Assembly (NCBI RefSeq): GCF_014352935.1
Contig: NZ_CP060694.1
Coordinates: forward strand, 124,001 to 188,000
Length of the DNA stretch: 64,000 nt
Source: Aliarcobacter cryaerophilus
Lineage (GTDB): Bacteria > Campylobacterota > Campylobacteria > Campylobacterales > Arcobacteraceae
Reading direction: 5' to 3'
The position numbers and the translations under genes are program-made. Of this stretch, positions 43,801 through 64,000 are shown in pieces. The notes beneath the pieces were generated by a model. That model was not told where the DNA came from, did no database searches, and was given only the letters and a program-made list of their open reading frames with translations. Position 1 is the first letter of the stretch, and each line of letters begins with the position of its first letter.

Positions 43801-45921
<2,121 letters not shown>

Positions 45922-45929
<8 letters not shown>

Positions 45930-46620
45930 CTGTGTAGCAATAATTCCAGCAAGAGGTGGAAGCAAAAGAATTCCTAAAAAAAACATAAAACTATTTCATG
46001 GAAAACCACTTATTGCTTATAGTATTGAGGTTGCTATAAAATCAAAACTTTTTTCTAAAGTTATTGTTTCAACAGATGATGAAGAGATAGCAAAAATTGC
46101 TAGAAGTTATGGAGCAGATGTTCCATTTATAAGACCAAAAGAGCTAAGTGATGATTTTACAGGAACAGGTGCTGTTGTAAATCATGCTATAGAATTTTTA
46201 AAAGCTCAAGGTGAAAAAATAGATTTCGTATGTACAATCTATGCAACCGCTCCATTTTTGCAAGAGAAATATCTAATTGAAGCTTACGAAAAATTAAAAA
46301 ATTCAAATGAAAGAAATGCTTTTTCTTGTACTTCGATGCCATTTCCAATTCAAAGAACTTTTAAAATAACAAAAGATGAAAGATGTGAAATGTTTTGGCC
46401 AGAGAATTTTTCTAAACGAAGTCAAGATTTAGAAGAAGCCTACCAAGATGCTGGACAATTTTATTGGACAAATTTAAATGTAAAATCAGATGATATTATA
46501 TTTGGTAAAGATAGTATCCCTATAATACTTCCTAGATATTTGGTGCAAGATATTGATACACTTGAGGATTGGACTAGAGCTGAATTTATGTACGAAGCTA
46601 TACAAAAAGAGTTAAAATGA
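45922..46620 (+). CDS. pseF: CMP-pseudaminic acid synthetase
   Basis: 232 aa. It activates pseudaminic acid with CTP. The cytidylyltransferase signature is IIPARGGSKRIPKKNIKLFH; further ATAPFLQEKYL and the metal-binding end LVQDIDTLEDW. It overlaps pseC by eight bases and the next gene by four (ATGA). Confidence 0.93.
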
Positions 46621-47521
46621 ATATTTTAGTAAGAGCTGATTCATCTTCATATATTGGAACTGGTCATATTATGAGAGATTTAGTTTTGGCTAAACAATAT
46701 AAAAATGAAAATATTATTTTTGCTACACAAGATTTAGTTGGAAATATAAATCACAAAATAGAAGAAGAAAACTACAAAATAGAACTTTTAAAATCAAATG
46801 ATTTTGAAGAGTTAAATAAGCTTGTAAAAAAATTCGAAATTGATATGATAATAATTGATAATTATGATATAGATTATAATTTTGAAAAAAATTAAAAGAA
46901 GATAACTCAAGTTTAAAAATATTTGTTTTAGATGATACTTATGAAAAACATTTTTGTGATATTTTATTAAATCACAATATTTATGCAAATAAAAAAAATT
47001 ATAAGAATAAAGTACCAGAAAATTGTGAATTAAGATGCGGAAGTAGATATATACTTTTAAGAGATGAGTTTTTGGAAGCTAAAAAAGCCAAAAAGAGAGT
47101 AAAGAAAAAAAATAAAATAATATTTTTGGGCTTAGGTGGAGCTGACCATAAAAACTTAAATATAAAAATTTTAAAAGTATTAGAAAAGTTTAAAAAATCT
47201 TTGAAAATAAATTTAGTAACTACAACAACAAATAAAAATTTAGAAGAGCTAAAAAAGTATTGTAAAGATAAAAAGTGGATAAATCTACAAATAAATTCAA
47301 ATGAAGTTGCAAAACTTATGAGCAAGAGTGATTTTGCAATTGTAACTCCTAGTGTAACAGCTAATGAGATTTTTTATTTAGATTTACCTATGATTACTAT
47401 AAAAACAGCTAAAAATCAAAATCAAATGCATAAATATTTAAAGAAAAAAGGGTATTTTACAATGAAAAAGTTTGATAAACAAAAGTTAAATAAATATTTA
47501 AAACTATTTTTAAAGAGGTAA
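46617..47521 (+). pseudogene. pseG: UDP-2,4-diacetamido-sugar hydrolase PseG, broken by a frameshift
   Basis: PseG removes UDP to give the free sugar used by PseI. The first frame (46617-46895, 92 codons) begins MNILVRADSSSYIGTGHIMR, the PseG nucleotide-binding start, and stops after NFEKN. The second frame (46892-47521) continues the protein: LKEDNSSLKIFVLDDTYEKH, later IIFLGLGGADHKNLNIKILK and VTPSVTANEIFYLDLP, to a normal end. The frames meet at seven A's (46885-46891); one more A would restore a single reading frame of about 302 codons. Without PseG the pathway is blocked unless slippage in the A tract restores it or the shift is a sequencing error. It sits in frame order between pseF and pseI as expected. 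Confidence 0.85.
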
Positions 47522-47523
47522 AT

Positions 47524-48555
47524 ATGAAAATAGGTAATTTTGATTTAAATAAAGATGGAGTTTATATAATTGCAGAACTTAGTGCAAATCATAATGGAAG
47601 TTTACAAACGGCACTTGATACAATAAAAGCTGCAAAAGAGATAGGCACAAATGCAATAAAACTTCAAACTTATCGTGCAGATACAATCACATTAAATAGT
47701 AAAAATCCTGATTTTATGATAGATGGTGGAACACTTTGGGATGGAAAAAATCTTTATGAACTTTACGAAGAGGCATATACTCCATGGGAGTGGCACAAAG
47801 AGCTGTTTGATTATGCTAGAAGCATAAATATTGATATTTTTTCAACACCTTTTGATAAAAGTGCAGTTGATTTTCTGGAGCAATTTAATCCAAGTGCATA
47901 TAAAATCGCCTCTTTTGAAATAACTGATTATGAGCTTGTAAGATATACAGCTTCAAAAGGTAAACCTATTATTATAAGTACAGGTGTTGCAACTATTGAT
48001 GAGATACAAGATGTTGTAGATATTTGTAGAAGTGTTGGAAATGAAAATATTATTCTTCTAAAATGCACTAGTGAATATCCAGCAAAACTAGAAGAAGCAA
48101 ATTTAAAAACCATTCCAAATATGAGAGATACTTTTGGTGTTGAGGTTGGATTTTCTGATCATACTATGGGGCATATTGCCCCTGTTGTTGCAGTTACTTT
48201 GGGTGCAAAAGTAATAGAGAAGCACTTTATTTTGGATAAAAATATAGGTGGAGCAGATAGTGCATTTTCTTTAGATAAAAAAGAGTTTGAAGAGATGATA
48301 AAAGCTGTTAGAGATAGTGAAAAGTTAATTGGAAGAGTTGATTATAGTTTAAATGAAAAAAGAGAAAAACAGCGTCGTTTTGCAAGAAGTTTGTATGTAT
48401 CAAAAGATATAAAAGAGGGCGAAGTTTTTAGTGAGGAGAATATTAAAAGTGTAAGACCTTTTTATGGACTGCATCCAAAATATTTAAAAAATATTTTAGG
48501 TAAAAAGGCAAAAAAAGATTATAAATTTGGAAGTAGAGTTGAAAATAGTTTTTAA
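47524..48555 (+). CDS. pseI: Pseudaminic acid synthase
   Basis: 343 aa. PseI joins the free 2,4-diacetamido hexose with phosphoenolpyruvate to make pseudaminic acid. The NeuB-type barrel is seen in IIAELSANHNGSLQTALDTI, NAIKLQTYRADTITL and FSDHTMGHIAPVVAVTLGA; the C-terminal SAF (antifreeze-like) domain begins at RFARSLYVSKDIKEG. RBS AAAGAGG. It overlaps the next gene. Confidence 0.95.
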   Translation: MKIGNFDLNKDGVYIIAELSANHNGSLQTALDTIKAAKEIGTNAIKLQTYRADTITLNSKNPDFMIDGGTLWDGKNLYELYEEAYTPWEWHKELFDYARSINIDIFSTPFDKSAVDFLEQFNPSAYKIASFEITDYELVRYTASKGKPIIISTGVATIDEIQDVVDICRSVGNENIILLKCTSEYPAKLEEANLKTIPNMRDTFGVEVGFSDHTMGHIAPVVAVTLGAKVIEKHFILDKNIGGADSAFSLDKKEFEEMIKAVRDSEKLIGRVDYSLNEKREKQRRFARSLYVSKDIKEGEVFSEENIKSVRPFYGLHPKYLKNILGKKAKKDYKFGSRVENSF

Positions 48556-49066
48556 GAATTTTATCTTTTTAAACGATATAGAGAAAAAAGATATTTTAGA
48601 GCTTAGAAATAAAGAGTATGTAAGAGAAAATATGATTAATAGTGAGCCAATAAGTTTAGAGAATCATATTTTATTTATAGAGTCATTAAAAAATAAGAAC
48701 AAAACATATTTTGCTATATTTTTTGATAATAAATTAATTGGTTCTTTAAATATTATAAAAAATGAAGAGCTAATTTGGGGATTATATTTTAAAGAAGAAG
48801 CAAATCCTATTATAAAATCTTGTGTAACTTATCTTTTTTTAGATTTTATTTTTTCTAAATTCAGTGAAGATGTAAACTCCTTTGTTAAAATAAAAAATAT
48901 TCAAGCATTAAATTTTAACAAAAATTTTGGATTTGAAATATTTAAAGAGGATGAAGAGTATTTTTATTTGAAACTATCAAAAGAGGTTTGGGAAAATAGT
49001 AAAAAATCAAGATTACTAAAACCAATTAAAAGATATTTAGATAAAATTGAGTATTACTTTGAATAA
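48539..49066 (+). CDS. pseH: GNAT acetyltransferase, PseH-like
   Basis: About 175 aa. It fits PseH, which acetylates the 4-amino group of the sugar intermediate before PseG acts. Features: ELRNKEYVRENMINSEPISL at the start of the GNAT fold, then YFAIFFDNKLIGSLNI, and a C-terminal NFNKNFGFEIFKEDEEY. I favour TTG 48539, five bases after GGAAG, over TTG 48527; both overlap the pseI end. The identity rests mainly on context and the GNAT fold, so it is less certain than its neighbours. Confidence 0.8.
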   Translation: MKIVFKNFIFLNDIEKKDILELRNKEYVRENMINSEPISLENHILFIESLKNKNKTYFAIFFDNKLIGSLNIIKNEELIWGLYFKEEANPIIKSCVTYLFLDFIFSKFSEDVNSFVKIKNIQALNFNKNFGFEIFKEDEEYFYLKLSKEVWENSKKSRLLKPIKRYLDKIEYYFE

Positions 49067-49076
49067 TGGGGACGAG

Positions 49077-49367
49077 ATGCAAGAAAAAATTGAAAAAATT
49101 ATAATAGATACATTAAAAGAGCTAAATGAAGAGTTAGAAAATGATTATTTTATAAATCTAAATTCTAAAACAAAGCTTTATGGTACAGATGGAGCTATGG
49201 ACTCTTTAGCGCTTGTTAGTTTTATAGCTGATTTAGAAGATAAAATTTCAGATGAGTTTGAAAAAGATATTATTTTAGCAGATGAAAAAGCTATGAGTGC
49301 AAAAACTTCACCTTTTAGAAATATTGAGAGTTTAACTTCTTATATAAAAAGTTTATTGGAAAATTGA
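49077..49367 (+). CDS. Acyl carrier protein
   Basis: 96 aa. A small acidic helical protein with a phosphopantetheine attachment site at Ser 43 (GAMDSLALVSFI). The frame is open from 49047, but ATG 49077 follows GGGGACGAG and fits the family length. It is not the fatty acid ACP (no fab genes beside it) and probably carries an acyl or aminoacyl group for the ligase and SDR encoded just after the inserted toxin-antitoxin pair. ACPs occur in similar Campylobacter flagellar glycosylation islands. Confidence 0.85.
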   Translation: MQEKIEKIIIDTLKELNEELENDYFINLNSKTKLYGTDGAMDSLALVSFIADLEDKISDEFEKDIILADEKAMSAKTSPFRNIESLTSYIKSLLEN

Positions 49368-49407
49368 CATCTATTTTAGAATAGGATAAAATGACAAGAT
49401 ATTGTCA
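49364..49407 (+). promoter_or_regulatory. Promoter and palindromic operator of the toxin-antitoxin pair
   Basis: TTGACA (49364-49369), exactly 17 bases, then TAAAAT (49387-49392). At once follows the inverted repeat TGACAAGATATTGTCA (49392-49407; arms TGACAA/TTGTCA), ending before the ribosome site AAAGGAG. The -35 overlaps the ACP stop codon. An antitoxin bound there would block transcription, the usual autoregulation of YefM/YoeB modules. Confidence 0.75.
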
Positions 49408-49419
49408 AAAGGAGATAAA

Positions 49420-49671
49420 ATGCAAGTAGTTCAATATTCACAAGCAAGAAATAATTTACGAGAGATAATAAATAAAGTATGTGATAACTTTGAAGAGTAT
49501 ATTATTAGTACAAAAGATAATAAGCAAGCAGTTTTAATATCTCAAGAAGAGTACAACTCTATGAAAGAGACTATGTATTTATTATCATCAAAAGCTAATA
49601 GAGATAGATTAAATGAAGCTATAGATGAGATAGAAAATTTAAAATTTATAAAAAAAGATATTAGCTTATGA
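49420..49671 (+). CDS. yefM: Antitoxin, Phd/YefM family
   Basis: 83 aa. The N-terminal half has the Phd/YefM DNA-binding fold (VQYSQARNNLREIINKVCDN, then ISTKDNKQAVLISQEEYNSM); the C-terminal half is the toxin-binding tail. ATG 49420 follows AAAGGAG; a longer start at 49402 is possible but lies in the operator. It overlaps the toxin gene by four bases. Confidence 0.93.
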   Translation: MQVVQYSQARNNLREIINKVCDNFEEYIISTKDNKQAVLISQEEYNSMKETMYLLSSKANRDRLNEAIDEIENLKFIKKDISL

Positions 49672-49931
49672 TAGTTGGTTTTTCCACAAAAGCTTGGGAA
49701 GATTATAAATATTGGGTACAAAATGATAAGCAAATAGTAAAAAGAATAAATTTATTATTAGAAGATATAAAAAGAAATCCATATGATTCAAATGGTATTG
49801 GAAAACCTGAAAGATTAAAGGAAAATTATAGTGGATATTTTTCAAGAAGAATTACAAGTGAGCATAGATTGGTTTACAAAATAGTAGATGATTTGATAAT
49901 TATTGCACAGTGCAGATTTCACTATTTATAA
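49668..49931 (+). CDS. yoeB: mRNA-cleaving toxin, YoeB/Txe family
   Basis: 87 aa. A ribosome-dependent endoribonuclease of the RelE/YoeB group. Conserved parts: STKAWEDYKYW, GIGKPERLK with the catalytic Glu, YFSRRITSEHRLVYKI with Arg, and the terminal CRFHYL carrying the His-Tyr pair. All catalytic residues known for YoeB appear intact, so the toxin is probably active. It ends 22 bases before the SDR start. Confidence 0.95.
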   Translation: MIVGFSTKAWEDYKYWVQNDKQIVKRINLLLEDIKRNPYDSNGIGKPERLKENYSGYFSRRITSEHRLVYKIVDDLIIIAQCRFHYL

Positions 49932-49953
49932 AATTTATAAAAAAGATAAAAAT

Positions 49954-50655
49954 ATGAATAAAGTAGTTGTTATAACTGGAACTTCAAAAGGTATAGGAAA
50001 AGCAATGGCTTTATACTATCTAAATAAAAATTTTGTAGTTGCTGGTTGTAGTAGAAGTAGTAGTTCAATAGAACATCAAAATTATAGACACTTTGAATTA
50101 GATATTACAGATGAAAAAGCTGTTGTAAGTATGATAAGAGCTATAAAAAAAGAGTTTAAAAAAATAGATATTCTTATAAACAATGCAGGAATTGCATCTA
50201 TGAATCATATTCTTACAACTTCAAATGAGTCAATATCAAAACTTTTTAATACAAATTTTTTAGGAACTTTTTTATTTACTAGAGAAGTAGCAAAAGTTAT
50301 GATGAAAGAAAAATATGGAAGAGTAATAAACTTTTCAACTATTGCAAAACCTCTTAGACTTGAAGGTGAAGCTGTTTATGCTGCAAGTAAAGCTGCAATT
50401 GAGAGTTTTACTCAAACTTCTTCAAAGGAGTTAAACGCTTTTAATATAACAGTAAATGCTATTGGTCCAACTCCAATCAAGACTGATTTAATAAAAGCTG
50501 TTCCAAAAGAGAAAATTGAAGATTTGTTAAATAAACAGACAATTAAGCGATTTGGAACAGTTGAAGATATTATAAATGTAATTGATTTTTTTATTGATGA
50601 TAGAAGTAGTTTTATAACTGGTCAGATAATTTATCTTGGTGGAGTTAATAACTAA
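49954..50655 (+). CDS. Short-chain dehydrogenase, FabG-like, of the ACP cassette
   Basis: 233 aa. NAD(P)-dependent oxidoreductase: VVITGTSKGIGKAMALYY, NNAGIA, FSTIAKPLRLEGEAVYAASK with the Tyr-Lys pair, and a FabG-type end RFGTVEDIINVIDFF. ATG 49954 is preferred to the open frame from 49903, which runs through the toxin gene. Placed between ACP and an adenylate-forming ligase, it probably reduces or oxidises a carrier-bound or free small acid. It abuts the ligase (one shared base). Confidence 0.85.
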   Translation: MNKVVVITGTSKGIGKAMALYYLNKNFVVAGCSRSSSSIEHQNYRHFELDITDEKAVVSMIRAIKKEFKKIDILINNAGIASMNHILTTSNESISKLFNTNFLGTFLFTREVAKVMMKEKYGRVINFSTIAKPLRLEGEAVYAASKAAIESFTQTSSKELNAFNITVNAIGPTPIKTDLIKAVPKEKIEDLLNKQTIKRFGTVEDIINVIDFFIDDRSSFITGQIIYLGGVNN

Positions 50656-51995
50656 TGAGTTTTATACTAGAAAAATTTAAAAGTTTTAACTCTAAAAATG
50701 CAATAGTTTTTGAAGATAGAATATATTCTTATGAAGAGTTTATTAAGCAAATAAAAGATTATAAAAATATTTTAGATAAGCACAATATATCTTCAAAAGT
50801 TGTTGTAATTTTGGGTGATTACTCTTTTTATAATCTAGCGCTATTTTTTGCTCTATATGAAAATAAAAATATAATTGTACCAATTACTTCAAATATAAAA
50901 AAAGTTCAAGATGATTTTATAGAAGAGTCATTTTGTCAAACTATTATAAAAACTGATGAAAAAAATCTTTTAATACAAGATTTAAAAAATGCATCTTCTC
51001 ATAATATGATAGATAATTTAAGAGAAAAAAATAGTTCTGGTCTTATTCTTTTTTCAAGTGGAAGTACAGGAAAACCAAAGGCTATGATACATAATCTTGA
51101 TACTCTAATAGACTCTTTCAAGGATAAAAAAGAGAAATCTATGAATATGTTGGTTTTTTTGATGTTTGATCATATTGGTGGATTAAATACAGTTTTTAAT
51201 GCTTTATGCATGGGAGCTTGTTTGATTATTCCAAAAATTAAAGATGCAAAAACTATTTGTGAACTTATAGAAAAATATAAAATTATGGTTCTTCCAAGTA
51301 GTCCAACTTTTTTAAATCTTATTTTAATCTCTGAAGAGTATAAAAATTATGATTTAAGTAGCTTGCGAATGATTACTTACGGTACTGAAACAATGCCACA
51401 ATCACTTCTTTTAAAATTAAAAGAAGTTTTTCCAAAGGTTAAATTTTTACAAACATTTGGAACAAGTGAAACAGGAATTAGTACTACTAGTTCAAAATCA
51501 TCAAACTCTTTATTTATGAAACTTGAAGATATAAATGGTGAGTATAAGATAGTTGAAAATGAACTTTGGCTTAGAAGTAAAACTCAAGTTTTAGGGTATT
51601 TAAATGCTTCAATGGATAGTTTTACAAGTGATGGTTGGTTTAAAACTGGTGATTTAGTTGAGGTTGATGGAGAGTATATAAAAATTATTGGAAGAGCTAA
51701 AGAGGTTATAAATGTAGGTGGTCAAAAAGTTCTTCCTGCTGAGGTGGAATCTATTATTTTAGAGATGGAAGAGATTAGCGATTGTATGGTTTATGCAGAG
51801 CAAAATGCAATTACAGGACAAACAGTTGTTTGTGATGTGGTTTTAAATAAGAATATAGAAAATATCAAAAAAAGAGTAAGAGGTTTTTGTAAAGATAGAT
51901 TAGATACTTATAAAATACCTACAAAGGTAAATGTAGTTGATAAAACAAATTTTAGTGATAGATTTAAGAAAATTAGACTTAAGGATATTAATTGA
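50655..51995 (+). CDS. Adenylate-forming acid-CoA/ACP ligase (ANL superfamily)
   Basis: 446 aa. It would activate a carboxylic acid with ATP and load it on the ACP. Core motifs: GLILFSSGSTGKPKAMIHN (P-loop A3), YGTETMPQSLL and LQTFGTSETGI (A4-A5), GWFKTGDLVEVDGEYIKIIG (A7), AKEVINVGGQKVLPAEVE (A8), and a C-terminal FSDRFKKIRLKDI where the catalytic Lys lies. It is compact for the family. The substrate is unknown; similar ligase plus ACP pairs occur in Campylobacter glycosylation islands that add glyceric or amino acid groups. Confidence 0.85.
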   Translation: MSFILEKFKSFNSKNAIVFEDRIYSYEEFIKQIKDYKNILDKHNISSKVVVILGDYSFYNLALFFALYENKNIIVPITSNIKKVQDDFIEESFCQTIIKTDEKNLLIQDLKNASSHNMIDNLREKNSSGLILFSSGSTGKPKAMIHNLDTLIDSFKDKKEKSMNMLVFLMFDHIGGLNTVFNALCMGACLIIPKIKDAKTICELIEKYKIMVLPSSPTFLNLILISEEYKNYDLSSLRMITYGTETMPQSLLLKLKEVFPKVKFLQTFGTSETGISTTSSKSSNSLFMKLEDINGEYKIVENELWLRSKTQVLGYLNASMDSFTSDGWFKTGDLVEVDGEYIKIIGRAKEVINVGGQKVLPAEVESIILEMEEISDCMVYAEQNAITGQTVVCDVVLNKNIENIKKRVRGFCKDRLDTYKIPTKVNVVDKTNFSDRFKKIRLKDIN

Positions 51996-52885
51996 AAATA
52001 GTAATTTTTGGTATAGGTGGAGCAGGAAGAGCAATATACAGGACACTTAAAGATGATAATCAAATAATTGCTTTTATTGAGAATAATAGTAGTTTATATG
52101 ATACTTTTTATGATGATATTTTAATAAAGCCAGTAGATTTTATAAAAGAGATAGAGTTTGACAAAATTGCTATTTCTGGGGTTTGGATAGAAGAGATGAA
52201 AAAACAACTTTTGGATTTAGGGGTACAAGAAGATAAAATTTGGCTAGTAGATGATAGTAGTTTAAAGTTTTCAAGCTTAGATAGGGAAAGAACAACAGAT
52301 AGCTTAATAAAAGAGTTTTCAAGACTTATGAGAAATGAAAATATTTCATATTTTATAGAGGGCTCTTCATTGCTTTGCCTTTTAAGAGGACAAAATTTAT
52401 CAGATGTTTCAGATGTGGATATATTGGTTACTTCAAAAGAAGATATAGAAAAGATTTGGGAAGCTCTAAATAAAAGTACAATTTTTTTAAATCAAGAACT
52501 AAAAAAAATAGTATATGAAAAAGATAAAATTCTTAGTAAAAAAGATGAGATAGATAAAATTATTGTAAAAAGTAAAAATCAATCTTATGATACAGAACCA
52601 ACAAATTTTGATATAAACTTAGCATATGATGTAGGGGATTTTTATATCCTTGATTATGAAAGTGAGTCGTATCACTATTATAGTAAAGAGTTTATAGAGC
52701 AAGGAAGGCAGATAGAGTATAAAGATATGAAGCTACAAATTCCTCTATATGCTGAAAAATATGTAGAACAAGCTTATGGTAAAAATTGGCGAATACCAGC
52801 AAAAAAGTGGTCTTATATGGATTATAAAAATCTTCTTTTAAGCAATAGTGAATTAATGAAATTTATCAAAAAGGGTAGAAAATGA
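51992..52885 (+). CDS. Rossmann-like module fused to a LicD-like nucleotidyltransferase fold
   Basis: 297 aa, start TTG overlapping the ligase stop. Residues 1-90 form a small nucleotide-binding-like module (KIVIFGIGGAGRAIYRTLKD, then FDKIAISGVW), also found in three other proteins of this island. Residues about 105-290 resemble LicD: YFIEGSSLLCLLRG followed by the metal-binding DVD at 141-143 in SDVSDVDILV. LicD proteins pass phosphocholine or a phosphonate from a CDP/CMP carrier to a glycan. Here a LicC-like gene lies three genes on, which supports a LicD role, but the match is weak and another nucleotidyltransferase role is possible. Confidence 0.6.
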   Translation: MKIVIFGIGGAGRAIYRTLKDDNQIIAFIENNSSLYDTFYDDILIKPVDFIKEIEFDKIAISGVWIEEMKKQLLDLGVQEDKIWLVDDSSLKFSSLDRERTTDSLIKEFSRLMRNENISYFIEGSSLLCLLRGQNLSDVSDVDILVTSKEDIEKIWEALNKSTIFLNQELKKIVYEKDKILSKKDEIDKIIVKSKNQSYDTEPTNFDINLAYDVGDFYILDYESESYHYYSKEFIEQGRQIEYKDMKLQIPLYAEKYVEQAYGKNWRIPAKKWSYMDYKNLLLSNSELMKFIKKGRK

Positions 52886-53946
52886 GAAATAAAGAGTATA
52901 TCTTTACTCCAGGACCTGTACCAATATCAGAAAAAATTCTAAAAATTGGCTCAAAACAGTTACCATATTTTAGAACAGATGAGTTTTCTAAAGTAGTTTT
53001 CGAGTGTAAAAAAGATTTGCTAGAACTTGTTAATGCACCAAAACATAGTGAAGTTGTTTTTATGACAAGTTCAGGAACAGGAGCTATGGAAGCATCTATT
53101 ATAAATCTTTTATCAAACAAAGATAAAGCAATAGTTATAAATGGTGGTGGCTTTGGAGAGAGATTTGTAGAGATATGTAATTTTCATAATATTTTTAATC
53201 ATAATATAAAAATAGAAAAAGATGAAGATATAAATTTTGAAGCATTAAAAAAGCTAGAAGCAAATAGTTTTTTAGTAAATGCTCATGAGACAACTATTGG
53301 AAGATTGTATAATTTGAAGAAAATTGGAGATTTTTGCAAAGAAAATAATCTTTTAAATATTGTAGATGCTATTAGTACTTTTGTAAGTGACAAAATAGAT
53401 ATGCAAGAGCAAAATATAGACGTTTTAATAACTAGCTCAAACAAGGGTTTAGCTCTACCACCAGCTTTAGGTATTGTGGTATTAAATCCAAATGCTCTTA
53501 AAAAAATAGAAAAATCAAGCTCATATTATTTTGATTTTAGCTCTTATCTAAAAGACATAAAAAGAGGACAAACTCCTTTTACACCAGCAATTTCTATAAT
53601 ACTTCAACTACAAAAAAGGCTAAAAGAGTTAAAAAAAAGAGGTATAAAAAAAGAGAATAAAAGAGTAGAAAAATTGGCTAAATATTTTAGAGAAAATATA
53701 AGGGATTTACCTTTTGAGTTTTATGTAAAAGATATGCCAAATGCAATGACAACTTTAACTCCAAAAGATGGTAAATTTGCAAGTAAGATAATAGAAGATT
53801 TTAAAATAAAATATAATATTACATTAACTCCAAGTGGAGGAGAGTTAAAAGATAAAGTAATTAGAGTATCACATATGGGAGATATGAATAAGAGATATAT
53901 CGATGTTCTTTTAAGAGCTTTAAAAGATTATTATAAGAAGGGATAA
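52882..53946 (+). CDS. Class V aminotransferase, PhnW/alanine-glyoxylate type
   Basis: 354 aa. PLP enzyme with TPGPVPISEKI at the start, FMTSSGTGAMEASI, and the PLP Lys at residue 188 in TSSNKGLALPPALGI. The closest named families are 2-aminoethylphosphonate-pyruvate transaminase (PhnW) and alanine/serine-glyoxylate transaminases. Next to LicC- and LicD-like genes, a role in making an amino-phosphonate or amino alcohol is attractive, since some PntC cytidylyltransferases are fused to such a transaminase. It overlaps the upstream gene by four bases. Confidence 0.75.
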   Translation: MRNKEYIFTPGPVPISEKILKIGSKQLPYFRTDEFSKVVFECKKDLLELVNAPKHSEVVFMTSSGTGAMEASIINLLSNKDKAIVINGGGFGERFVEICNFHNIFNHNIKIEKDEDINFEALKKLEANSFLVNAHETTIGRLYNLKKIGDFCKENNLLNIVDAISTFVSDKIDMQEQNIDVLITSSNKGLALPPALGIVVLNPNALKKIEKSSSYYFDFSSYLKDIKRGQTPFTPAISIILQLQKRLKELKKRGIKKENKRVEKLAKYFRENIRDLPFEFYVKDMPNAMTTLTPKDGKFASKIIEDFKIKYNITLTPSGGELKDKVIRVSHMGDMNKRYIDVLLRALKDYYKKG

Positions 53947-53949
53947 AAA

Positions 53950-54816
53950 ATGATAGATGTAAATGATGAAGCGATTAATATAAAAAAAAGACTAATAGAG
54001 ATTGAAAATATTCAAAAAGAGTTACAAAATGAACAAGAGTTTTTAAAAAATAAAATTCATCTATATTTTGATGGGGAGCAATTTGAAACTAGTAAAGCTG
54101 AAGCTTTTATTGTTGATTGGTATTGGCAAAATTGTTATGGTAGCGAAATAAGAATAGACCCAATAAGAGTTAATTATACAAAAAATAGTTTAGAAAAAAC
54201 TATTAAAAAGTATGTTACAAATTATAATAGAGCATTAGATATAGGGTGTGGGTATGGACTTTTTACAGAGTTTATGGCATCAAGATTTAAAGAGAGTATA
54301 GGGTTAGATTTAAGTGAGTTTAGAGTTGGTGAAAATAATAAGAATAATAAGCTAGAAAATGTAAAATATTTGTCAGATAATTTTGTAACTTGTGATAAAT
54401 CTAAACTAGGAAAATTTGATTTCATTTTTGCAAGTGATATAAATATGTATTCAAGTGAAAAAGATTATGAGCAAATTTTTAATTCATATCTTGATTTATT
54501 GGATGATGAGGGGGTACTTTTAATGAGAGAGAGTGTATATAAAGAAGATGAATATAAAGAGCATAAATCTCATAGATATGTAGCTTATTATAAGAGTATA
54601 AATTATTATAAAAATGGAATATATAAAAACTACTATATAGATAGTTTTAAAGACACTAGTATACATATAAATGAATTAAATAGAAAATATTTTTCTCTTT
54701 TTCCAGAGAAAAAAGCAGAAGTAGAGAGAGATATAAAATTACTTGATGATATAGTAAAAAATAATATTAGTAGAGATACTACTACAAGTTATTATTATAT
54801 TTATAAAAAGGATTAA
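53950..54816 (+). CDS. SAM-dependent methyltransferase, paralogue 1
   Basis: 288 aa. A coiled coil (about residues 5-38) precedes a class I methyltransferase domain: motif I ALDIGCGYGLF at 96-106, GLDLSEFRV, FDFIFASDINMYS and LDDEGVLLMRESVY. The C-terminal part has RYVAYYKSINYY, also present in the paralogue at 55532-56422, so the two arose by duplication. The methyl acceptor is unknown; either N-methylation of an amino group or O-methylation of a small acid would fit the cassette. Confidence 0.8.
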   Translation: MIDVNDEAINIKKRLIEIENIQKELQNEQEFLKNKIHLYFDGEQFETSKAEAFIVDWYWQNCYGSEIRIDPIRVNYTKNSLEKTIKKYVTNYNRALDIGCGYGLFTEFMASRFKESIGLDLSEFRVGENNKNNKLENVKYLSDNFVTCDKSKLGKFDFIFASDINMYSSEKDYEQIFNSYLDLLDDEGVLLMRESVYKEDEYKEHKSHRYVAYYKSINYYKNGIYKNYYIDSFKDTSIHINELNRKYFSLFPEKKAEVERDIKLLDDIVKNNISRDTTTSYYYIYKKD

Positions 54817-54819
54817 ATC

Positions 54820-55530
54820 TTGAGAGTTTTAATAATGGCAGCAGGAGTAGGAAGTAGAATAAGTAGGCACTTGCAAGGGCAACCAAAGTGTTGTGTTAAG
54901 ATAAAAGATACTCCTCTTATTAGATATACTGTAGAGCTTTTAAACAAAAAAGGGATAAAAGATATAGCAATTGTTACAGGGTATGCTCAAGATTTTATTA
55001 TTGATGCTTTAAAAGGTTTAGAGTATAAACACTACTATAATCCATTTTTTGATGTTACAAATTCAATAGCTTCAACATGGTTTGCAAAATATTTTTTACA
55101 AAACAGTGATGATTATATTATTATGAATGGAGATGTTTTTATAGAAGAGAATATATTAGATACTCTTCTTGAAAATAGCAGATCTCCACTTTTTTTGGCT
55201 GATAGTACAAGAGTAGAAGATGCTGATTATAGGTTTAACTACAAAGATAATAAGCTAGTAAAATATGGAAAAGATATAAGTGTTGAGGAGACTACTGGAG
55301 AGTATGTAGGAATTGCAAAGATAAAAAAAGAGGATATAGATTTTATGAAACAAAAACTAGAAGAGCTAATATCTTTTCAAAAGCATGGCTATTGGTGGGA
55401 AGATATATTTTATAGAAACATAGAAAAAAAAGATGTCTATATAAAAGATATAAAAGGCTACTTCTGGGCTGAGGTTGATTATATAGAAGATTATGAGAGA
55501 ATTAAAAAATATTTGGAAAAAGGAGTTTAA
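54820..55530 (+). CDS. LicC/PntC-like cytidylyltransferase
   Basis: 236 aa, start TTG. Nucleotidyltransferase fold with AAGVGSR at 7-13, PKC at 22-24, the segment YNPFFDVTNSIASTWFAKY typical of the LicC (phosphocholine) and PntC (phosphonate) group, metal-binding MNGD at 102-105, and a C-terminal WAEVDYIEDY. It would join CTP with a small phospho- or phosphono-amino compound. Sugar-1-phosphate specificity cannot be excluded, but the VTNSxxS motif argues against it. Lies between the two methyltransferase genes. Confidence 0.75.
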   Translation: MRVLIMAAGVGSRISRHLQGQPKCCVKIKDTPLIRYTVELLNKKGIKDIAIVTGYAQDFIIDALKGLEYKHYYNPFFDVTNSIASTWFAKYFLQNSDDYIIMNGDVFIEENILDTLLENSRSPLFLADSTRVEDADYRFNYKDNKLVKYGKDISVEETTGEYVGIAKIKKEDIDFMKQKLEELISFQKHGYWWEDIFYRNIEKKDVYIKDIKGYFWAEVDYIEDYERIKKYLEKGV

Positions 55531-55531
55531 G

Positions 55532-56422
55532 TTGGATAAGCTAAATCAAGATCTAATAGAGGCAAAAAAAAGGTTAAATGAGATAGAGAAGATTAAGCTA
55601 GAGCTAGATGAAGAGTTTAAATATCTTCAAGATAAGATTCATATGTATTTTGATAGTGAAGTTCACAATACTGATGAAGCAGAGAAGTTTATAATAGGTG
55701 ATTTTTGGTCAAAAGCATATATGCTATATAAAGATGGTGGATATATTACAAATGATGAATATATCTCAAAAGTAAGATTTGATTATGAGACAAAACAGTT
55801 AGAAAAAATTATAAATGAAAATATAAAAAATAGAAAAACTGCTCTTGATATAGGTTGTGGAGAGGGAAGATATACAAAGGAGTTTGCAAAGATTTTTGAT
55901 AGTGTTACAGGACTTGACTTATCGCAAGACAGAGTTGATAGAAACAATAGTGAAAATAGTAATCCAAAAATAAAATATATAAATGAAAACTTTCTAAAAG
56001 TAGAAAAAGGAAGTTTGGGAAAATTTGATTTTGTATTTGCTAGTGATGTTTTTACTTATACTCCAGACAAAGAGATAGAGCCAATATTTGAAAAGCTTTT
56101 AGAGCTGGTTGCTGATGATGGATTTTTGATTATGAGAGAAAGTACACAAAACCATGGAAGTAGTGCTTGGAGATCTAAAGGATATGTAGCATATTATAGA
56201 AATACAAAATTCTATGAAGAGAGTATCTTCAAACAAACTTTTAAATCTTCATATCAAATATATGGGTATAGCTTATACTATACAAATAAATATTTTAATG
56301 TAAATAGAGAAAAAAGAGATGAAGTAGCAAAAAATCCATTTTTACTTGATGAAATTGTGCCAAAATTTATAGACCCAAAACTAAAATCAGCACATTTTTT
56401 CTTGCATAAGGTAAAGAGTTGA
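55532..56422 (+). CDS. SAM-dependent methyltransferase, paralogue 2
   Basis: 296 aa from TTG 55532, which follows AAAGGAG; a longer in-frame ATG at 55493 would overlap the cytidylyltransferase and adds 13 residues with no match in the paralogue. The order is as in paralogue 1: coiled coil, YLQDKIHMYFDSE, motif I ALDIGCGEGRY, GLDLSQDRV, FDFVFASDVFTYT, and RGYVAYYR-like GYVAYYRNTKFYEESIF. The close match over its length argues for tandem duplication, then insertion or retention of the LicC-like gene between the copies. Confidence 0.8.
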   Translation: MDKLNQDLIEAKKRLNEIEKIKLELDEEFKYLQDKIHMYFDSEVHNTDEAEKFIIGDFWSKAYMLYKDGGYITNDEYISKVRFDYETKQLEKIINENIKNRKTALDIGCGEGRYTKEFAKIFDSVTGLDLSQDRVDRNNSENSNPKIKYINENFLKVEKGSLGKFDFVFASDVFTYTPDKEIEPIFEKLLELVADDGFLIMRESTQNHGSSAWRSKGYVAYYRNTKFYEESIFKQTFKSSYQIYGYSLYYTNKYFNVNREKRDEVAKNPFLLDEIVPKFIDPKLKSAHFFLHKVKS

Positions 56423-57858
56423 AAATAGAAGATTTAAGAGGTAAAAACTGTTATATTTTTCCAAAATCACCAATTACAGAGACTTTTAAAAAGTATTTAG
56501 ATGTAAATGGTGTTTTTGTAAAAGATTTTATTGATAATCAAAAAAAAGAGAATACTTTTTATTTAGATGATATTTCATCAAAAGATTTTGACTATATTTT
56601 AATCTTCTCTCCAAATCACTATAGAGCGATTTATGAGCAAACTATTAACTCTATTTCAAAAGAGAAAGTAATATTTGTATATTTTGGAAATAATAATAAA
56701 GAATATCTTTTTACAAAAGATATAGAAGCATTATCAACCATAGATAGTAAAGAGAAATATGAGAAATATTTTGAAACAAAAATTAAAAACTACACTCTAA
56801 AAGATGAAGTACTTTTTATAGGGATAGGATTTTTGGATTTAAATATAAAATATTTGTATCTATTTCTAAAAAAACATACCAATTTAAAAGTATATATATC
56901 AACAAACAATCAAAGAGATATAGATATTTTTAAAAAGTACAATATAGATGTAGTTCCTTTTTTTAGTGAAGAGTTTTTTGATTTAGTTTTTAGAACAAAG
57001 ATAAAAATAGTTGATCAAACTCCAACAGATGAGTTACTGATAAAATGTTTAAATATTGGAAAATCTATCCAGCTTTGGCATGGAATTACTATTGAGCAGT
57101 TAGGAGTTTTGGCAAATTATAAACTGCTTAAATATGATGTTGTTTTATCTACTTCAAATTTTGTGAGTGATTACTCTTTTAGTAAAATATATCTATATGA
57201 TAAGCTTATAAATTGTGGTTACCCTAGAAATGATATTTTGTATAATGATAATATAGAGCTTATAAATGTGGATTTAGAACTTTTAGATGAGATTAAAAAT
57301 AGTAAAGAGTTGAAATATGTAGTATATATGCCAACTCATAGGCTTCATAGTTTTGAAAGTAATCCAATAAACTATAAAGAGCTAAATGATTTTGGAGTAA
57401 GAAATAGTATTAAGTTTATAATAAAAATGCACCCACTTGTAGCAGAAAAAGCAAGAGAAGATTTAGCTCTTTATCAAGAAATTTGTGATTTCTCAAATTT
57501 AGTGATATATCCATCTTTTATGGATATATACCCGATATTAAAATATAGTGATATTTTAATATCTGATTATTCATCTGTTTATTTTGATTTTTTATATACA
57601 AATAAACCAATAATATTTTTTTGTTATGATTACAAAGAGTGGGTAGAGAGTGAGGGGAGTGTAGTGCTTGATTATTTCTCTTACTCACCTGGAGATAAAT
57701 GCTATACATTTATAGAACTTTTAAACTCTATTTTAACTAATTTAAAAGAAGATAAATATATAGGTGATAGAAAAAGAGTATTTGATCAAATGTTTGAAAA
57801 TAAAACTCAATCTGCATCTAAACTTATTTTAGAAGAGATAAAAGGATTATTAAAATAA
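56419..57858 (+). CDS. CDP-glycerol/TagB-TagF-like glycerophosphotransferase
   Basis: 479 aa, start TTG overlapping the previous stop. Residues 1-100 form the small Rossmann-like module shared with other island proteins. The C-terminal 300 residues match the TagB/TagF (CDP-glycerol glycerophosphotransferase) fold: QLWHGI near 219, YMPTHR near 304, IKMHPL near 337, and SDYSSVYFDFLYTNKPIIFF near 382. Such enzymes pass an alcohol phosphate from a CDP carrier to a glycan or polymer, so it may be the acceptor enzyme for the product of the cytidylyltransferase. Its end overlaps the converging GT2 gene by nine bases. Confidence 0.8.
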   Translation: MKIEDLRGKNCYIFPKSPITETFKKYLDVNGVFVKDFIDNQKKENTFYLDDISSKDFDYILIFSPNHYRAIYEQTINSISKEKVIFVYFGNNNKEYLFTKDIEALSTIDSKEKYEKYFETKIKNYTLKDEVLFIGIGFLDLNIKYLYLFLKKHTNLKVYISTNNQRDIDIFKKYNIDVVPFFSEEFFDLVFRTKIKIVDQTPTDELLIKCLNIGKSIQLWHGITIEQLGVLANYKLLKYDVVLSTSNFVSDYSFSKIYLYDKLINCGYPRNDILYNDNIELINVDLELLDEIKNSKELKYVVYMPTHRLHSFESNPINYKELNDFGVRNSIKFIIKMHPLVAEKAREDLALYQEICDFSNLVIYPSFMDIYPILKYSDILISDYSSVYFDFLYTNKPIIFFCYDYKEWVESEGSVVLDYFSYSPGDKCYTFIELLNSILTNLKEDKYIGDRKRVFDQMFENKTQSASKLILEEIKGLLK

Positions 57859-62078: not shown

Positions 62079-63100
62079 TTTTGTAATTCTAACATATTTT
62101 TTGAAAAACTAATAAGAAACTGAAAAAAACCATGATTTTTAAAACCAATTTTTAGATTGTAATAAATATAAGATTTAACTACAGTTTCATTTATATTAAA
62201 ATTTATATCAATATTATATTTTTTAGCTTGCTTATTAAAAAATATTTTATGGAAAGATTTTCCATATATATTTATATCGTTTTCATCAAATCCAAGTTTT
62301 TCTATATTTTTAAAAAATATTTGATAATAAGATTTATAATTATTTTCCAATGTATGTAATGTCATTTTTGTATTTACAGAGGAAACTATATTTATAGTAG
62401 CAATTTCATTTGAATTCAATCTTAATTTATTGACTAATTTATTTTCTATATTTTGATAATTTTTTTGATGATTTGAAATATGTACTTCAATATTCTCAAA
62501 AATATCTTTTATATCTTTCAGCTCTATCAACTCTAAATTACTATTTTTCCCAAACTTATTTTTTATCTCTTTTATTGAATTCTTATCAAAATATAAAGCC
62601 TTAAAATCATACTCTGGAAAATCTTTTATTATTTCATTTACATACTCTACAAACTCTTCATCTTCCAAATTCTCTTTAGTAGCTAAAAATCCCACACAAT
62701 TTGGTTTATACATATTTTTTAACTCTTCACTTAATGGTTCAGATAGACTATGTAAAAATTTAGCTTCATTAAATTTTTCATGATTTTTATCAATCAAGGT
62801 ATATGGAGAGTTTACAAGTTCCTCACCAGAGTCATGATTTTTAAAAGATATAATAGCTTTTTTACCTATATATTGCACTGGTAGATTGTATGTGAAAGCT
62901 TTGCTTTCAACATCATACATATCATCGATTTTTTGTATAAACTCATTTGCTATAATTGTATCAATTAGTTTGTCATCTAAAAAAACATCTATTTTTTGTG
63001 TTTCATCACTTCCTATTTTTTTTGCAAAACCTATAAATGAGAAAAAGTTCTCCGTATGAAGAGCACCATAAGTTTTACCAGTTTGTATAGGTCTAGTCAT
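62075..63100 (-). CDS. Unknown protein with a beta-sandwich-like N-terminus, next to Maf
   Basis: 341 aa. Residues about 15-105 (FSFIGFAKKIGSDETQKIDV, then FLDDKLIDTIIANEF) recall a beta-sandwich domain found attached to bacterial glycosyltransferases, with a pattern like VDGxxVGTxxANxxR. The remaining 230 residues are helical and charged, with no motif I know. It overlaps the Maf gene by eight bases, so the two are coupled and may work on the same glycoprotein. Function not recognised. Confidence 0.6.
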   Translation of the reverse strand: MTRPIQTGKTYGALHTENFFSFIGFAKKIGSDETQKIDVFLDDKLIDTIIANEFIQKIDDMYDVESKAFTYNLPVQYIGKKAIISFKNHDSGEELVNSPYTLIDKNHEKFNEAKFLHSLSEPLSEELKNMYKPNCVGFLATKENLEDEEFVEYVNEIIKDFPEYDFKALYFDKNSIKEIKNKFGKNSNLELIELKDIKDIFENIEVHISNHQKNYQNIENKLVNKLRLNSNEIATINIVSSVNTKMTLHTLENNYKSYYQIFFKNIEKLGFDENDINIYGKSFHKIFFNKQAKKYNIDINFNINETVVKSYIYYNLKIGFKNHGFFQFLISFSKNMLELQK

Positions 63101-64000
63101 TTCTTACCTTTTGAGATTTGATATCAATTCTATCAAATATGCTATTAAAACTACTCAAAACTTCGTAAATTTGTTTTTCTAAAATCTTATTTACTTCTTT
63201 GTTTTCTAAAATTTTATTATAAGGTAATATAAGCTTAAAAAATCTATCAAAAATATTACAAATCATAGAGTTTGGATATTTTTCAAAAAATATTTTAAAC
63301 TCTTGATGAAATTTTTCTATTTTTATGGTATTTAGTTTTTTAAGTACTTTTTTCTCTTTTATTATCTCTTTTGTATCAATCTCTTCTAAGTTTTGTTTAG
63401 AAATTTTTTTAAAACTCTCAAAAAGTTTTATATCTAAAATTTCTTTATCTATTTGCTCTAAATTACTTTTTAATTCTTCTATTTTTAAAGGAGTAGCACC
63501 TTTAAAATATGCACCACTTCCTAAATTATAAACCTTTACAAATTCGGAGTGTTTAAATATTATATCTTCAGCACTCTCTATCATCTCTAAATACTCTCTA
63601 AAAGTAGGTACTTCTTCTTCAAAATTTCCTTTGACATAAACAATATCTTCTCTAAAATCTCCACTATTTTTCACATTTAGATTTAGTTTTCTACTTGATT
63701 TATGAGTTCCTACATGAGTTTTCCCATTTTTACTATCAATACTAGCATCAACTCCTAAAAGATAAATCTCTTTAGCTCCAAGCCTAGCAATTATATCAAT
63801 ACCAATATCTCCAACAGTAACGCCACTTAAAAAACCATAGTTTGAAAATAGCTCCAAAGCATTTTGCATAAAAAATATTTTTGTATGTTTTAGTTTTAAA
63901 AATAGCTTGGTATCAAGTTTGATTGAAGCTAAAATTATAGAGTCTTTATACATTTTAGAATCTGTATTAAACTGCTCAAGCATTGGTTCTTTTTGACCAT
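63093..64000 (-). CDS. Motility accessory factor (Maf), DUF115 family, 5' end cut by window edge
   Basis: At least 302 aa; the frame is open to the window edge (GQKEPMLEQF precedes the first internal Met), so the N-terminus is missing. The DUF115/MAF_flag10 core is clear: GFLSGVTVGDIGIDIIARLG, then AKEIYLLGVDASIDSKNGKT. Maf proteins glycosylate flagellin with nonulosonic acids such as pseudaminic acid in Campylobacter and relatives, which matches the pse genes in this window. A helical C-terminal third follows. Confidence 0.88.
   Translation of the reverse strand, partial: GQKEPMLEQFNTDSKMYKDSIILASIKLDTKLFLKLKHTKIFFMQNALELFSNYGFLSGVTVGDIGIDIIARLGAKEIYLLGVDASIDSKNGKTHVGTHKSSRKLNLNVKNSGDFREDIVYVKGNFEEEVPTFREYLEMIESAEDIIFKHSEFVKVYNLGSGAYFKGATPLKIEELKSNLEQIDKEILDIKLFESFKKISKQNLEEIDTKEIIKEKKVLKKLNTIKIEKFHQEFKIFFEKYPNSMICNIFDRFFKLILPYNKILENKEVNKILEKQIYEVLSSFNSIFDRIDIKSQKVRND

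What the first reader, a model, noticed from the sequence alone, without database searches (positions are those of the whole stretch)
51992..57858. Candidate new pathway: CMP/CDP-activated amino-phosphonate or phospho-amino alcohol decoration in a pseudaminic acid island
Six adjoining plus-strand genes encode a LicD-like protein, a PhnW-like class V aminotransferase, two methyltransferases, a LicC/PntC-like cytidylyltransferase and a TagB/TagF-like transferase. Established knowledge: LicC with LicD makes and transfers phosphocholine; PntC cytidylyltransferases activate 2-aminoethylphosphonate and may be joined to an AEP transaminase. Inference: this set builds a methylated amino-phospho/phosphono group and puts it on a surface glycan. 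No PEP mutase or decarboxylase is in the window, so the phosphonate branch is unproven.
Basis: partly seen in the sequence, partly recalled or inferred. Interest (0 to 1): 0.72.

Follow-up and report, generated by a model that had tools for sequence, protein, structure and literature searches.

The report
Exchangeable phospho-amino glycan decoration cassette
A block of six genes beside a flagellar sugar island probably builds a methylated amino-alcohol phosphate, activates it with cytidine and puts it on a surface sugar; close relatives carry true phosphonate genes in the same place, so the bacteria seem to swap one phosphorus decoration for another.

Summary
The six plus-strand genes are real, tightly packed and partly conserved elsewhere. 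The cytidylyltransferase (CyT) is nearest LicC, then PntC. The aminotransferase (AT) is PhnW-like but far below the AEP-transaminase cut-off. Both methyltransferases (MT) are nearest, by a moderate margin, to phosphoethanolamine N-methyltransferases. The phosphonate reading fails for this genome: no PEP mutase, nor in any of 15 genomes with a close AT or CyT. Best reading: AT makes a phospho-amino alcohol (serinol-P or ethanolamine-P), the MTs N-methylate it, CyT makes the CDP form, LicD/TagF transfer it to the pseudaminic-acid (flagellin) glycan. AT relatives sit beside glycerol-3-phosphate-cytidylyltransferase-like/dehydrogenase fusions, distant MT relatives near cytidylyltransferase and CDP-alcohol phosphotransferase genes. 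Unexpected: the site after the AMP-ligase is an exchange slot. In the genus, 2 of 31 genomes carry AT-CyT-MT there, 2 carry PEP mutase there, one a CDP-polyol-like cassette; the LicD-like protein beside one PEP mutase is 69% identical to the window's. The amino alcohol and all activities are undetermined. Nearest known kind: C. difficile type A and P. aeruginosa b-type flagellin decoration.

The parts
51992..52885 (+). LicD-like phosphotransferase (TTG start): N-terminal PglD_N-like Rossmann part plus LicD-type domain
   Evidence: 69% identical to the LicD-like protein beside PEP mutase in G011
52882..53946 (+). PhnW-like class V aminotransferase (AT); below the AEP-transaminase cut-offs
53950..54816 (+). 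MT1, SAM methyltransferase nearest phosphoethanolamine N-methyltransferases
54820..55530 (+). CyT, LicC/PntC-type cytidylyltransferase (TTG start)
55532..56422 (+). MT2, SAM methyltransferase nearest phosphoethanolamine N-methyltransferases (likely TTG start 55532; mechanical ORF from 55493)
56419..57858 (+). TagF-like CDP-X:glycan phosphotransferase (PF04464)
50655..51995 (+). AMP-ligase; last gene of the conserved flank, where the exchange slot begins
49954..50655 (+). SDR of the conserved flank (ORF 49903-50655; 233-aa homologues imply a start at 49954)
49047..49367 (+). acyl carrier protein of the conserved flank
   Evidence: (weak family hit, E 6e-4)
43810..49066 (+). pseudaminic acid genes: PseB, C, F, G (broken into two ORFs), I and an acetyltransferase-like ORF
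   Evidence: PseG by its intact G029 homologue; names PseB/C/F/I are recalled, no family search was made for them
63093..64000 (-). C-terminal part of a Maf-type flagellin glycosyltransferase gene that continues beyond the window

Best explanation
A cassette that decorates the pseudaminic-acid (probably flagellin) glycan with an N-methylated phospho-amino alcohol. Inferred route: (1) AT aminates a phosphorylated C3 ketone or C2 aldehyde, most likely dihydroxyacetone phosphate to serinol phosphate, or glycolaldehyde phosphate to phosphoethanolamine; (2) MT1 and MT2 N-methylate this phosphobase, in the extreme case to phosphocholine; (3) CyT makes the CDP-amino alcohol; (4) the LicD-like and/or TagF-like protein moves the phospho-amino alcohol onto the glycan. 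It sits in a slot downstream of the AMP-ligase where relatives carry other CMP/CDP-donor cassettes (phosphonate, polyol-phosphate-like) with orthologous or analogous transferases. Shown: gene families, synteny, absence of PEP mutase, exchange slot. Inferred: every enzyme activity, the amino alcohol, the acceptor.
For: CyT: best solved relative LicC over residues 2-233 (E 1.9e-15), then PntC; sugar enzymes lower and mostly over the first half; same order with an 11-sequence profile (67.0, 57.1, then 46.1 bits). MTs: the best solved relatives of all three MTs searched are plant phosphoethanolamine N-methyltransferases; in the 6-sequence profile search 11 of 46 chains are such enzymes, and their best single domains score 71.5 and 65.4 (plant) and 48.8 bits (nematode) against 47.7 and 40.2 for the next others. 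MT2 homologues (31-33%) of two genomes of other families lie directly beside a CTP_transf_like gene and, past an Asp/Glu racemase, a CDP-alcohol phosphotransferase gene. AT: relatives of 49.6-54.8% identity follow fusions of a CTP_transf_like and a GFO/IDH/MocA domain in 4 loci, two with LicD directly behind; the one fusion scanned is nearest glycerol-3-phosphate cytidylyltransferase and inositol 2-dehydrogenase, both below cut-off. LicD-AT-CyT triplet in Fusobacterium, no PEP mutase in that 2.1 Mb record; LicD-AT-fusion in a Ruminococcus plasmid, TagF-AT-TagD-like in a Bacteroides plasmid. No PEP mutase. No choline-kinase-family hit in G000, G122, G125. Slot. Maf gene 5 kb away.
Against: No member of this AT clade has a known substrate; its best solved relative 3f0h is named only 'aminotransferase'. 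The high whole-chain scores of the plant methyltransferases (104 and 97 bits) sum two domains; by single domain the margin is moderate, and for the G029 MT only 35.6 against 29.0 bits. The structural second look at MT2 (core only, mean pLDDT 60) lists various N-methyltransferases (OvoA, OvsM, TylM1, NodS), none of them a phosphoethanolamine enzyme in the 50 rows. CyT has Asn103 and Glu194 where LicC has Asp/Asp and Tde-PntC Glu/Glu, so neither phosphocholine nor AEP is indicated. G029 has one choline-kinase-family hit elsewhere (48.1 bits, over cut-off). Six AT-CyT loci (L023, L024, L067, L068, L070, L083) show no MT hit (some stretches end near the pair). The CTP_transf_like hits beside the distant MTs are partial (29.3 and 25.3 bits). 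LicD profile comparison is weak (71.8% probability) and the WDDDID motif of true LicD is absent. PseG is broken in this genome, so the island may be off.
Confidence: 0.57

Rival explanations
1. Type A-like phospho-amino acid: the cassette makes a CDP-N-methyl amino acid (as proposed for CDP-threonine in C. difficile), with AT supplying an unusual phospho-amino acid, and TagF transferring it.
For: LicC-like cytidylyltransferase, N-methyltransferase and TagF-like transferase are the same three kinds of gene as described for CD0242-CD0244 and PA1088-PA1091 (passages of PMC10714395 and PMC11833859); both systems decorate flagellin glycans.
Against: None of the six genes is a phosphoserine-phosphatase-like protein such as CD0241; AT relatives go with glycerol-3-phosphate-cytidylyltransferase-like domains and MT relatives with a CDP-alcohol phosphotransferase.
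Confidence: 0.13
2. Amino-phosphonate (AEP) decoration, with the phosphonate imported or the PEP mutase lost.
For: PntC is the second-best solved relative of CyT and AT is PhnW-like; PEP mutase cassettes occupy the same slot in G011 and G015, beside LicD-like proteins, one of them 69% identical to the window's.
Against: No PEP mutase in this genome nor over cut-off in 15 genomes with close AT or CyT, this one included; AT scores 173.9 bits against the AEP-transaminase cut-off 360.8, whereas the AT of a PEP mutase cluster (G034) scores 387.3; AT and CyT of that cluster sit on very long branches apart, whose exact place is unsure.
Confidence: 0.07
3. Amino-sugar pathway: AT aminates a nucleotide-linked sugar, the MTs N-methylate it, CyT is a sugar-1-phosphate enzyme.
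For: NCBIfam sub-threshold hits of CyT are mostly sugar nucleotidylyltransferases; TylM1 and DesVI amino-sugar N-methyltransferases rank high in the structure comparison of MT2.
Against: Full-length best matches of CyT are LicC and PntC; AT belongs to the class V (PhnW/AGAT-like) group; no dehydratase- or epimerase-type gene among the six; the MT profile's best single-domain matches are phosphoethanolamine enzymes (71.5 bits against 47.7 for the best other).
Confidence: 0.12
4. Phosphoramidate-type decoration like the methyl phosphoramidate of C. jejuni, with the MTs methylating the phosphorus group.
For: Distant CyT homologues (about 28-35% identity) of the same bacterial family lie beside a PPDK_N/PEP-utilisers protein of 772 aa in L027; ORFs of 767-779 aa hold the same place in L028-L033 but were not scanned.
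Against: No such gene among the six; the four CyT homologues of those loci put in the tree form a branch of their own (99/100); no aminotransferase belongs to the known phosphoramidate route (recalled).
Confidence: 0.04

Closest known systems
C. difficile type A and P. aeruginosa PAO1 b-type flagellin glycan clusters (cd0240-cd0244, pa1088-pa1091)
   Same: LicC-like cytidylyltransferase, N-methyltransferase and TagF-like transferase in a flagellin glycan locus; CDP-(N-methyl)amino compound as proposed donor (passages)
   Different: Here a PhnW-like aminotransferase instead of a phosphoserine-phosphatase-like gene, two methyltransferases, an extra LicD-like protein, and a pseudaminic acid island; no direct sequence comparison was made
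Lic-1 phosphocholine pathway (LicA, LicB, LicC, LicD)
   Same: LicC-type cytidylyltransferase plus LicD-like transferase
   Different: No choline-kinase-family hit in this genome; amine apparently made de novo by AT and MTs. A licABCD locus is reported in C. upsaliensis (passage of PMC539331)
PntC/AEP phosphonyl tailoring pathway
   Same: Class V aminotransferase with a LicC-like cytidylyltransferase; the same genomic slot holds PEP mutase in two genomes of the genus
   Different: No PEP mutase; AT fails the AEP-transaminase cut-offs, CyT pocket positions differ
Phosphoethanolamine N-methyltransferases (PMT) of plants, nematodes, Plasmodium
   Same: Best sequence matches of MT1 and MT2, including an R-E-S stretch of the N-terminal plant and nematode domain
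   Different: Separate single-domain proteins in a glycan cassette; margin over other methyltransferases moderate; substrate unknown
Serinol phosphate formation by DHAP transamination (RtxA; C. jejuni Cj1437)
   Same: Proposed reaction of AT
   Different: RtxA (PMC3222319) and Cj1437 (PMC12096443) are known from passages only; no sequence comparison with AT was made; those passages name no CDP derivative of serinol

Membership tests
AEP phosphonyl tailoring (PntC) pathway | PEP mutase in the genome | tested here: not met
   Only one hit below the TIGR02320 cut-off (121.6 of 319.55 bits), a methylisocitrate-lyase-like gene beside a citrate-synthase-like gene (the last two names recalled from the sequences)
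AEP phosphonyl tailoring (PntC) pathway | AEP transaminase above curated cut-off | tested here: not met
   TIGR03301 173.9 of 360.8 bits; TIGR02326 118.1 of 400.8; NF010006 126.2 of 296
AEP phosphonyl tailoring (PntC) pathway | Phosphonopyruvate decarboxylase in the genome | not tested
   No search was made in the own genome; none among the ten island proteins scanned
AEP phosphonyl tailoring (PntC) pathway | CyT prefers AEP (Glu104/Glu196 pocket) | tested here: inconclusive
   Aligned positions are Asn103 and Glu194 (alignments; pocket residues from PMC6697681 section 8)
Lic-1 phosphocholine pathway | LicC-type cytidylyltransferase | tested here: met
   Best solved relative 1jyk over 2-233; activity not testable here
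Lic-1 phosphocholine pathway | LicA choline kinase | tested here: not met
   PF01633 no match in G000
Lic-1 phosphocholine pathway | LicD family transferase | tested here: inconclusive
   No PF04991 hit for the window protein; homologues in the slot of G015, G007 and G011 pass it
Lic-1 phosphocholine pathway | LicB choline permease | not tested
   -
Type A/b-type flagellin phospho-amino decoration | LicC-like CyT, N-methyltransferase-like protein and TagF-like transferase near flagellin glycosylation genes | tested here: met
   met by family only, no comparison with CD0242-CD0244 was possible
Type A/b-type flagellin phospho-amino decoration | CD0241/PA1089-like phosphoserine-phosphatase-type protein | tested here: not met
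   No HAD-type family among the six proteins; the rest of the genome was not searched
Phosphoethanolamine N-methyltransferases | Sequence relation to PMT above other methyltransferases | tested here: met
   Best solved matches; single-domain margin moderate (71.5 against 47.7 bits; 35.6 against 29.0)
Phosphoethanolamine N-methyltransferases | Structural match to PMT | tested here: inconclusive
   Not among the 50 rows shown; low-confidence model outside the SAM-binding core
Phosphoethanolamine N-methyltransferases | Methylation of phosphoethanolamine | not testable with these tools
   needs enzyme assay

The most novel reading that the evidence does not exclude
A choline-independent, soluble bacterial route to a CDP-activated N-methylated or quaternary amino alcohol (phosphocholine itself or its serinol homologue) used to decorate nonulosonic-acid flagellin glycans, built around a new aminotransferase family and swapped, as a cassette at one chromosomal slot, with phosphonate and polyol-phosphate-like cassettes that feed an orthologous LicD-like transferase.
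Probability: 0.4. Interest if true: 0.78.

Novelty: new variant of a known kind. Interest (0 to 1): 0.62.

Why it matters
It gives a concrete, testable function to a family of PhnW-like aminotransferases found here in the window's phylum and in Fusobacteriota, Bacillota and Bacteroidota records, which by best family hit would be called 2-aminoethylphosphonate transaminase although none of the 15 genomes and one full-length record searched has PEP mutase over the cut-off. If right, it adds a de novo source of a phosphocholine-like group to the known bacterial choline-phosphate routes, and it shows that phosphonate, phospho-amino-alcohol and probably polyol-phosphate donors are interchangeable at one slot of a surface glycan island, which bears on how such bacteria vary what host receptors, phages and antibodies see.

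Tried and rejected
Single-sequence structure prediction of the LicD-like protein failed (mean pLDDT 40) and was not used for a fold search. The structure of MT2 from a 6-row alignment is good only in the SAM-binding core; its comparison shows N-methyltransferase relatives but no phosphoethanolamine enzyme in the 50 rows, which counts neither way. The one genome-contig scan, with the AT alone, gave a single weak archaeal locus (26% identity) and no close named relatives. MT2 has no match in the plasmid collection at E 1e-12. PHROGs gave one to three hits of unknown or general function for three of four proteins, none for the LicD-like one. A role of ACP-SDR-AMP-ligase in making the phospho group was considered and rejected: the ligase occurs in 10 of 31 genus genomes, CyT at E 1e-8 in 2 of them. 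F. nucleatum LPS papers were searched for phosphocholine (listing only) and not followed; passages of PMC10918830 and PMC5495459 were seen and bear only indirectly. The trees of AT and CyT have few well-supported forks and very long outgroup branches; they are used only to say that the PEP-mutase-cluster proteins and the kinase-locus CyTs stand apart. Novelty in print: the searches over the held open-access library listed (in lists capped at 10 to 20 rows) no paper on an AT-CyT-methyltransferase-LicD/TagF cassette; subscription papers are mostly not held.


Full report
Observation. The window is bases 124001-188000 of a single-contig genome of 2,020,388 bases; no call names the organism, and that it belongs to the Arcobacter group of Campylobacterota is my inference from its genes. 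They are packed with overlaps of 4 or gaps of 1 to 3 bases, each start preceded by an AAGG-type site. MT2 most likely starts at TTG 55532. G+C of the six-gene stretch is 0.26 against 0.288 for the window.

Protein families. The CyT has as best solved relatives LicC (E 1.9e-15, residues 2-233) and the PntC-AEP transaminase protein (1.6e-9, residues 3-226); sugar nucleotidylyltransferases follow, mostly over the first half. A profile of 11 homologues gives the same order. The alignments place Asn103 and Glu194 of CyT, both invariant in 11 of 11 homologues, at the positions of LicC Asp105/Asp192 and Tde-PntC Glu104/Glu196 that lie at the amine (PMC6697681, section 8 read), so its pocket is neither one nor the other. 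The AT best matches an uncharacterised structure, 3f0h (E 5e-86), and reaches 173.9 bits with the AEP transaminase model, cut-off 360.8. MT1, MT2 and the MT2 of G029 each have the plant phosphoethanolamine N-methyltransferases 5wp5 and 5wp4 as best solved relatives. In the profile search these reach 104 and 97 bits, but that sums two domains; their best single domains score 71.5 and 65.4, the nematode enzyme 48.8, the best others 47.7 (1wzn, uncharacterised) and 40.2 (OvsM); 11 of 46 chains are phosphoethanolamine methyltransferases. For the G029 protein alone the margin is small (35.6 against 29.0 bits). The TagF-like protein is PF04464 at 155.9 bits. The LicD-like protein has no Pfam hit itself, a weak Mf1 choline phosphotransferase hit and a weak profile match to LicD proteins, but aligns over its length with slot proteins of G015, G007 and G011 that pass PF04991.

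No phosphonate pathway in this genome. The only PEP mutase-family hit is a 295-aa methylisocitrate-lyase-like protein next to a citrate-synthase-like ORF, far below the PEP mutase cut-off (121.6 of 319.55 bits). Genomes with a close AT or CyT: G000, G029, G055, G060, G067, G068 and G037, G122, G125, G282, G339, G375, G394, G428, G455; 0 of these 15 have a PEP mutase over the cut-off. G060 is 91% complete, the others 97% or more. Of the 19 genomes, G034 and G085 do have one; in G034 PEP mutase, a TPP decarboxylase, CyT and AT form a cluster, its AT passes TIGR03301 with 387.3 bits and is 24% identical to the window's.

Who shares the cassette. AT at E 1e-50 or better occurs in 12 of 397 genomes of the phylum drawn; MT2 at E 1e-25 in 6 of 397, four of them with the AT. 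G029: Pse genes, ACP, SDR, AMP-ligase, LicD-like, AT, CyT, MT2, then a Stealth-family protein in place of TagF. G125 and G122: PseF, TagF-like, AT, CyT, MT2, TagF; G122 also has a split MT1-like gene. Thus each of the four cassettes has at least one transferase of the CDP-donor kind (LicD or TagF family), but not always the same one.

What the AT and MT relatives stand next to. In G339, G455, G037 and G394 the AT follows a protein that fuses a CTP_transf_like domain to a GFO/IDH/MocA oxidoreductase; for G339 the first domain is nearest glycerol-3-phosphate cytidylyltransferase (121.2 bits, cut-off 165.4) and the second nearest inositol 2-dehydrogenase (60.2 bits, cut-off 355). In G339 and G455 a PF04991 LicD follows. 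In Fusobacterium vincentii a LicD (34% identical to that of G339), AT (45%) and CyT (50%) stand together, near an RfaY-like kinase gene (47.5 bits, below cut-off), with no PEP mutase match in the 2.1 Mb record. A Ruminococcus albus plasmid has LicD, AT, the same kind of fusion, LicD, GNAT, LicD; a Bacteroides plasmid has a TagF-family gene, AT and a TagD-like cytidylyltransferase; only those plasmids, not the chromosomes, were searched for PEP mutase (none). These pairings suggest a three-carbon, glycerol-derived amino alcohol for the AT family: CDP-glycerol oxidised and aminated in the fusion loci, DHAP aminated directly in the window type (inference). In G068 a CyT 58% identical to the window's stands beside a HisC-like aminotransferase instead; G067 has an ORF of the same length in that place, not scanned. 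MT2 homologues of G174 and G147 stand directly beside a gene with a partial CTP_transf_like hit and, on the other side past an Asp/Glu racemase, a CDP-alcohol phosphotransferase gene, as expected of a methyltransferase in a CDP-amino-alcohol route.

The slot. The AMP-ligase of the island occurs at E 1e-80 or better in 10 of 31 genomes of the genus, and I read the downstream region in all ten. DNA synteny with G015 and G007 ends within about 20 bases of the end of the AMP-ligase gene. Directly or within about 0.4 kb behind it stand: LicD-like + AT + CyT + MT in G000 and G029; LicD-like + PEP mutase (with a CTP_transf_like domain and EDKTGLKKNS) + TPP decarboxylase + iron alcohol dehydrogenase in G015; LicD-like + PEP mutase and, further on, a second LicD-like + PEP mutase + decarboxylase + dehydrogenase set in G011; LicD-like without a recognised donor cassette in G007; TagF-like + an IspD-SDR fusion, of the kind expected for a CDP-polyol, in G030. 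In G013, G012, G025 and G009 blastp showed none of these there (G013 was compared with the window proteins only). In the genus PEP mutase above cut-off is found in 2 of 31 genomes, G011 and G015, one copy of each directly behind the LicD-like gene and the second G011 copy about 5 kb further on. CyT at E 1e-8 is found in 2 of 31, G000 and G029. The first LicD-like protein of G011, next to PEP mutase, is 69% identical to the window's, closer than that of G029 (57%), which shares the window's cassette. So the transferase appears to follow the acceptor and the donor cassette to be exchanged (inference).

Acceptor. A Maf-type gene runs into the window end at 63093 and pseudaminic acid genes precede the cassette; Maf proteins put nonulosonic acids on flagellin (established knowledge). 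Flagellin is therefore the likeliest carrier; LOS is not excluded. PseG of this genome is split by a frame change around 46880-46890 while G007, G013, G029 and G030 have one long ORF, so the island may be silent in this isolate, or this may be a sequencing error.

Comparison with known systems. Passages read of PMC10714395 and PMC11833859 show that C. difficile type A and P. aeruginosa b-type flagellin glycans depend on a LicC-like cytidylyltransferase, a putative N-methyltransferase and a TagF-like transferase, with CDP-threonine as proposed donor. This is the kind the window works like; the aminotransferase in place of the phosphatase-like protein is the main difference. Passages of PMC10434233 describe four bacterial phosphocholine-related routes and mention phosphoethanolamine methylation only for parasites. 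Passages of PMC3222319 and PMC12096443 document DHAP transamination to serinol phosphate in Bradyrhizobium and C. jejuni. No listing among ten literature searches showed the cassette described here (calls named under tried and rejected).

Verdict. Real, shared with a few relatives and probably functional as a unit; the phosphonate reading is rejected for this genome but true of the same slot in two relatives; the most likely product is a CDP-activated N-methylated phospho-amino alcohol. The choice between serinol and ethanolamine (phosphocholine) is open: AT neighbours favour serinol, MT relatives favour ethanolamine.

Noticed in passing
window 49364-49947: An insertion of 584 bases between ACP and SDR, absent from G015 and G007, whose translation looks like a YefM/YoeB-type antitoxin-toxin pair (recognised by eye, no family search).
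   Followed up: partly
window 46617-47521: PseG is split into two frames around 46880-46890; long single ORFs exist in G007, G013, G029 and G030. No run of 8 or more A or T, or 7 or more G or C, lies at the break.
   Followed up: partly
L101 4294-14492 (G011): Two PEP mutase cassettes in one island, each with its own LicD-like protein; the first is followed by a metallophosphatase-like, an SDR/epimerase-like, a DUF6564 and a weakly saccharopine-dehydrogenase-like protein, a phosphonate set that I do not recognise.
   Followed up: partly
L023, L024, L067, L068, L070: AT-CyT pairs (AT fused to a domain with a weak alpha/beta-hydrolase hit in L067 and, by 66% identity, L068) amid large uncharacterised proteins; L023 also has Mur-ligase and weak ATP-grasp hits. 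Possibly an unknown surface polymer.
   Followed up: partly
L025, L026: CyT close to an aminotransferase-sized gene (HisC-like in L025) and an ORF of about 3200 aa or more running off the stretch; L025 also has PGA_cap and Mur-ligase hits.
   Followed up: partly
L066, L069, L071, L074, L084: Fusion of a CTP_transf_like (glycerol-3-phosphate-cytidylyltransferase-like in L066) and a GFO/IDH/MocA domain next to the AT (L084 by 42% identity), a candidate CDP-glycerol oxidation enzyme.
   Followed up: partly
L112, L113: MT2 homologues beside cytidylyltransferase-like, Asp/Glu racemase, CDP-alcohol phosphotransferase and alpha-alpha-toroid/methyltransferase fusion genes.
   Followed up: partly
window 2310-11039: A 2909-aa ORF, not examined.
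   Followed up: no
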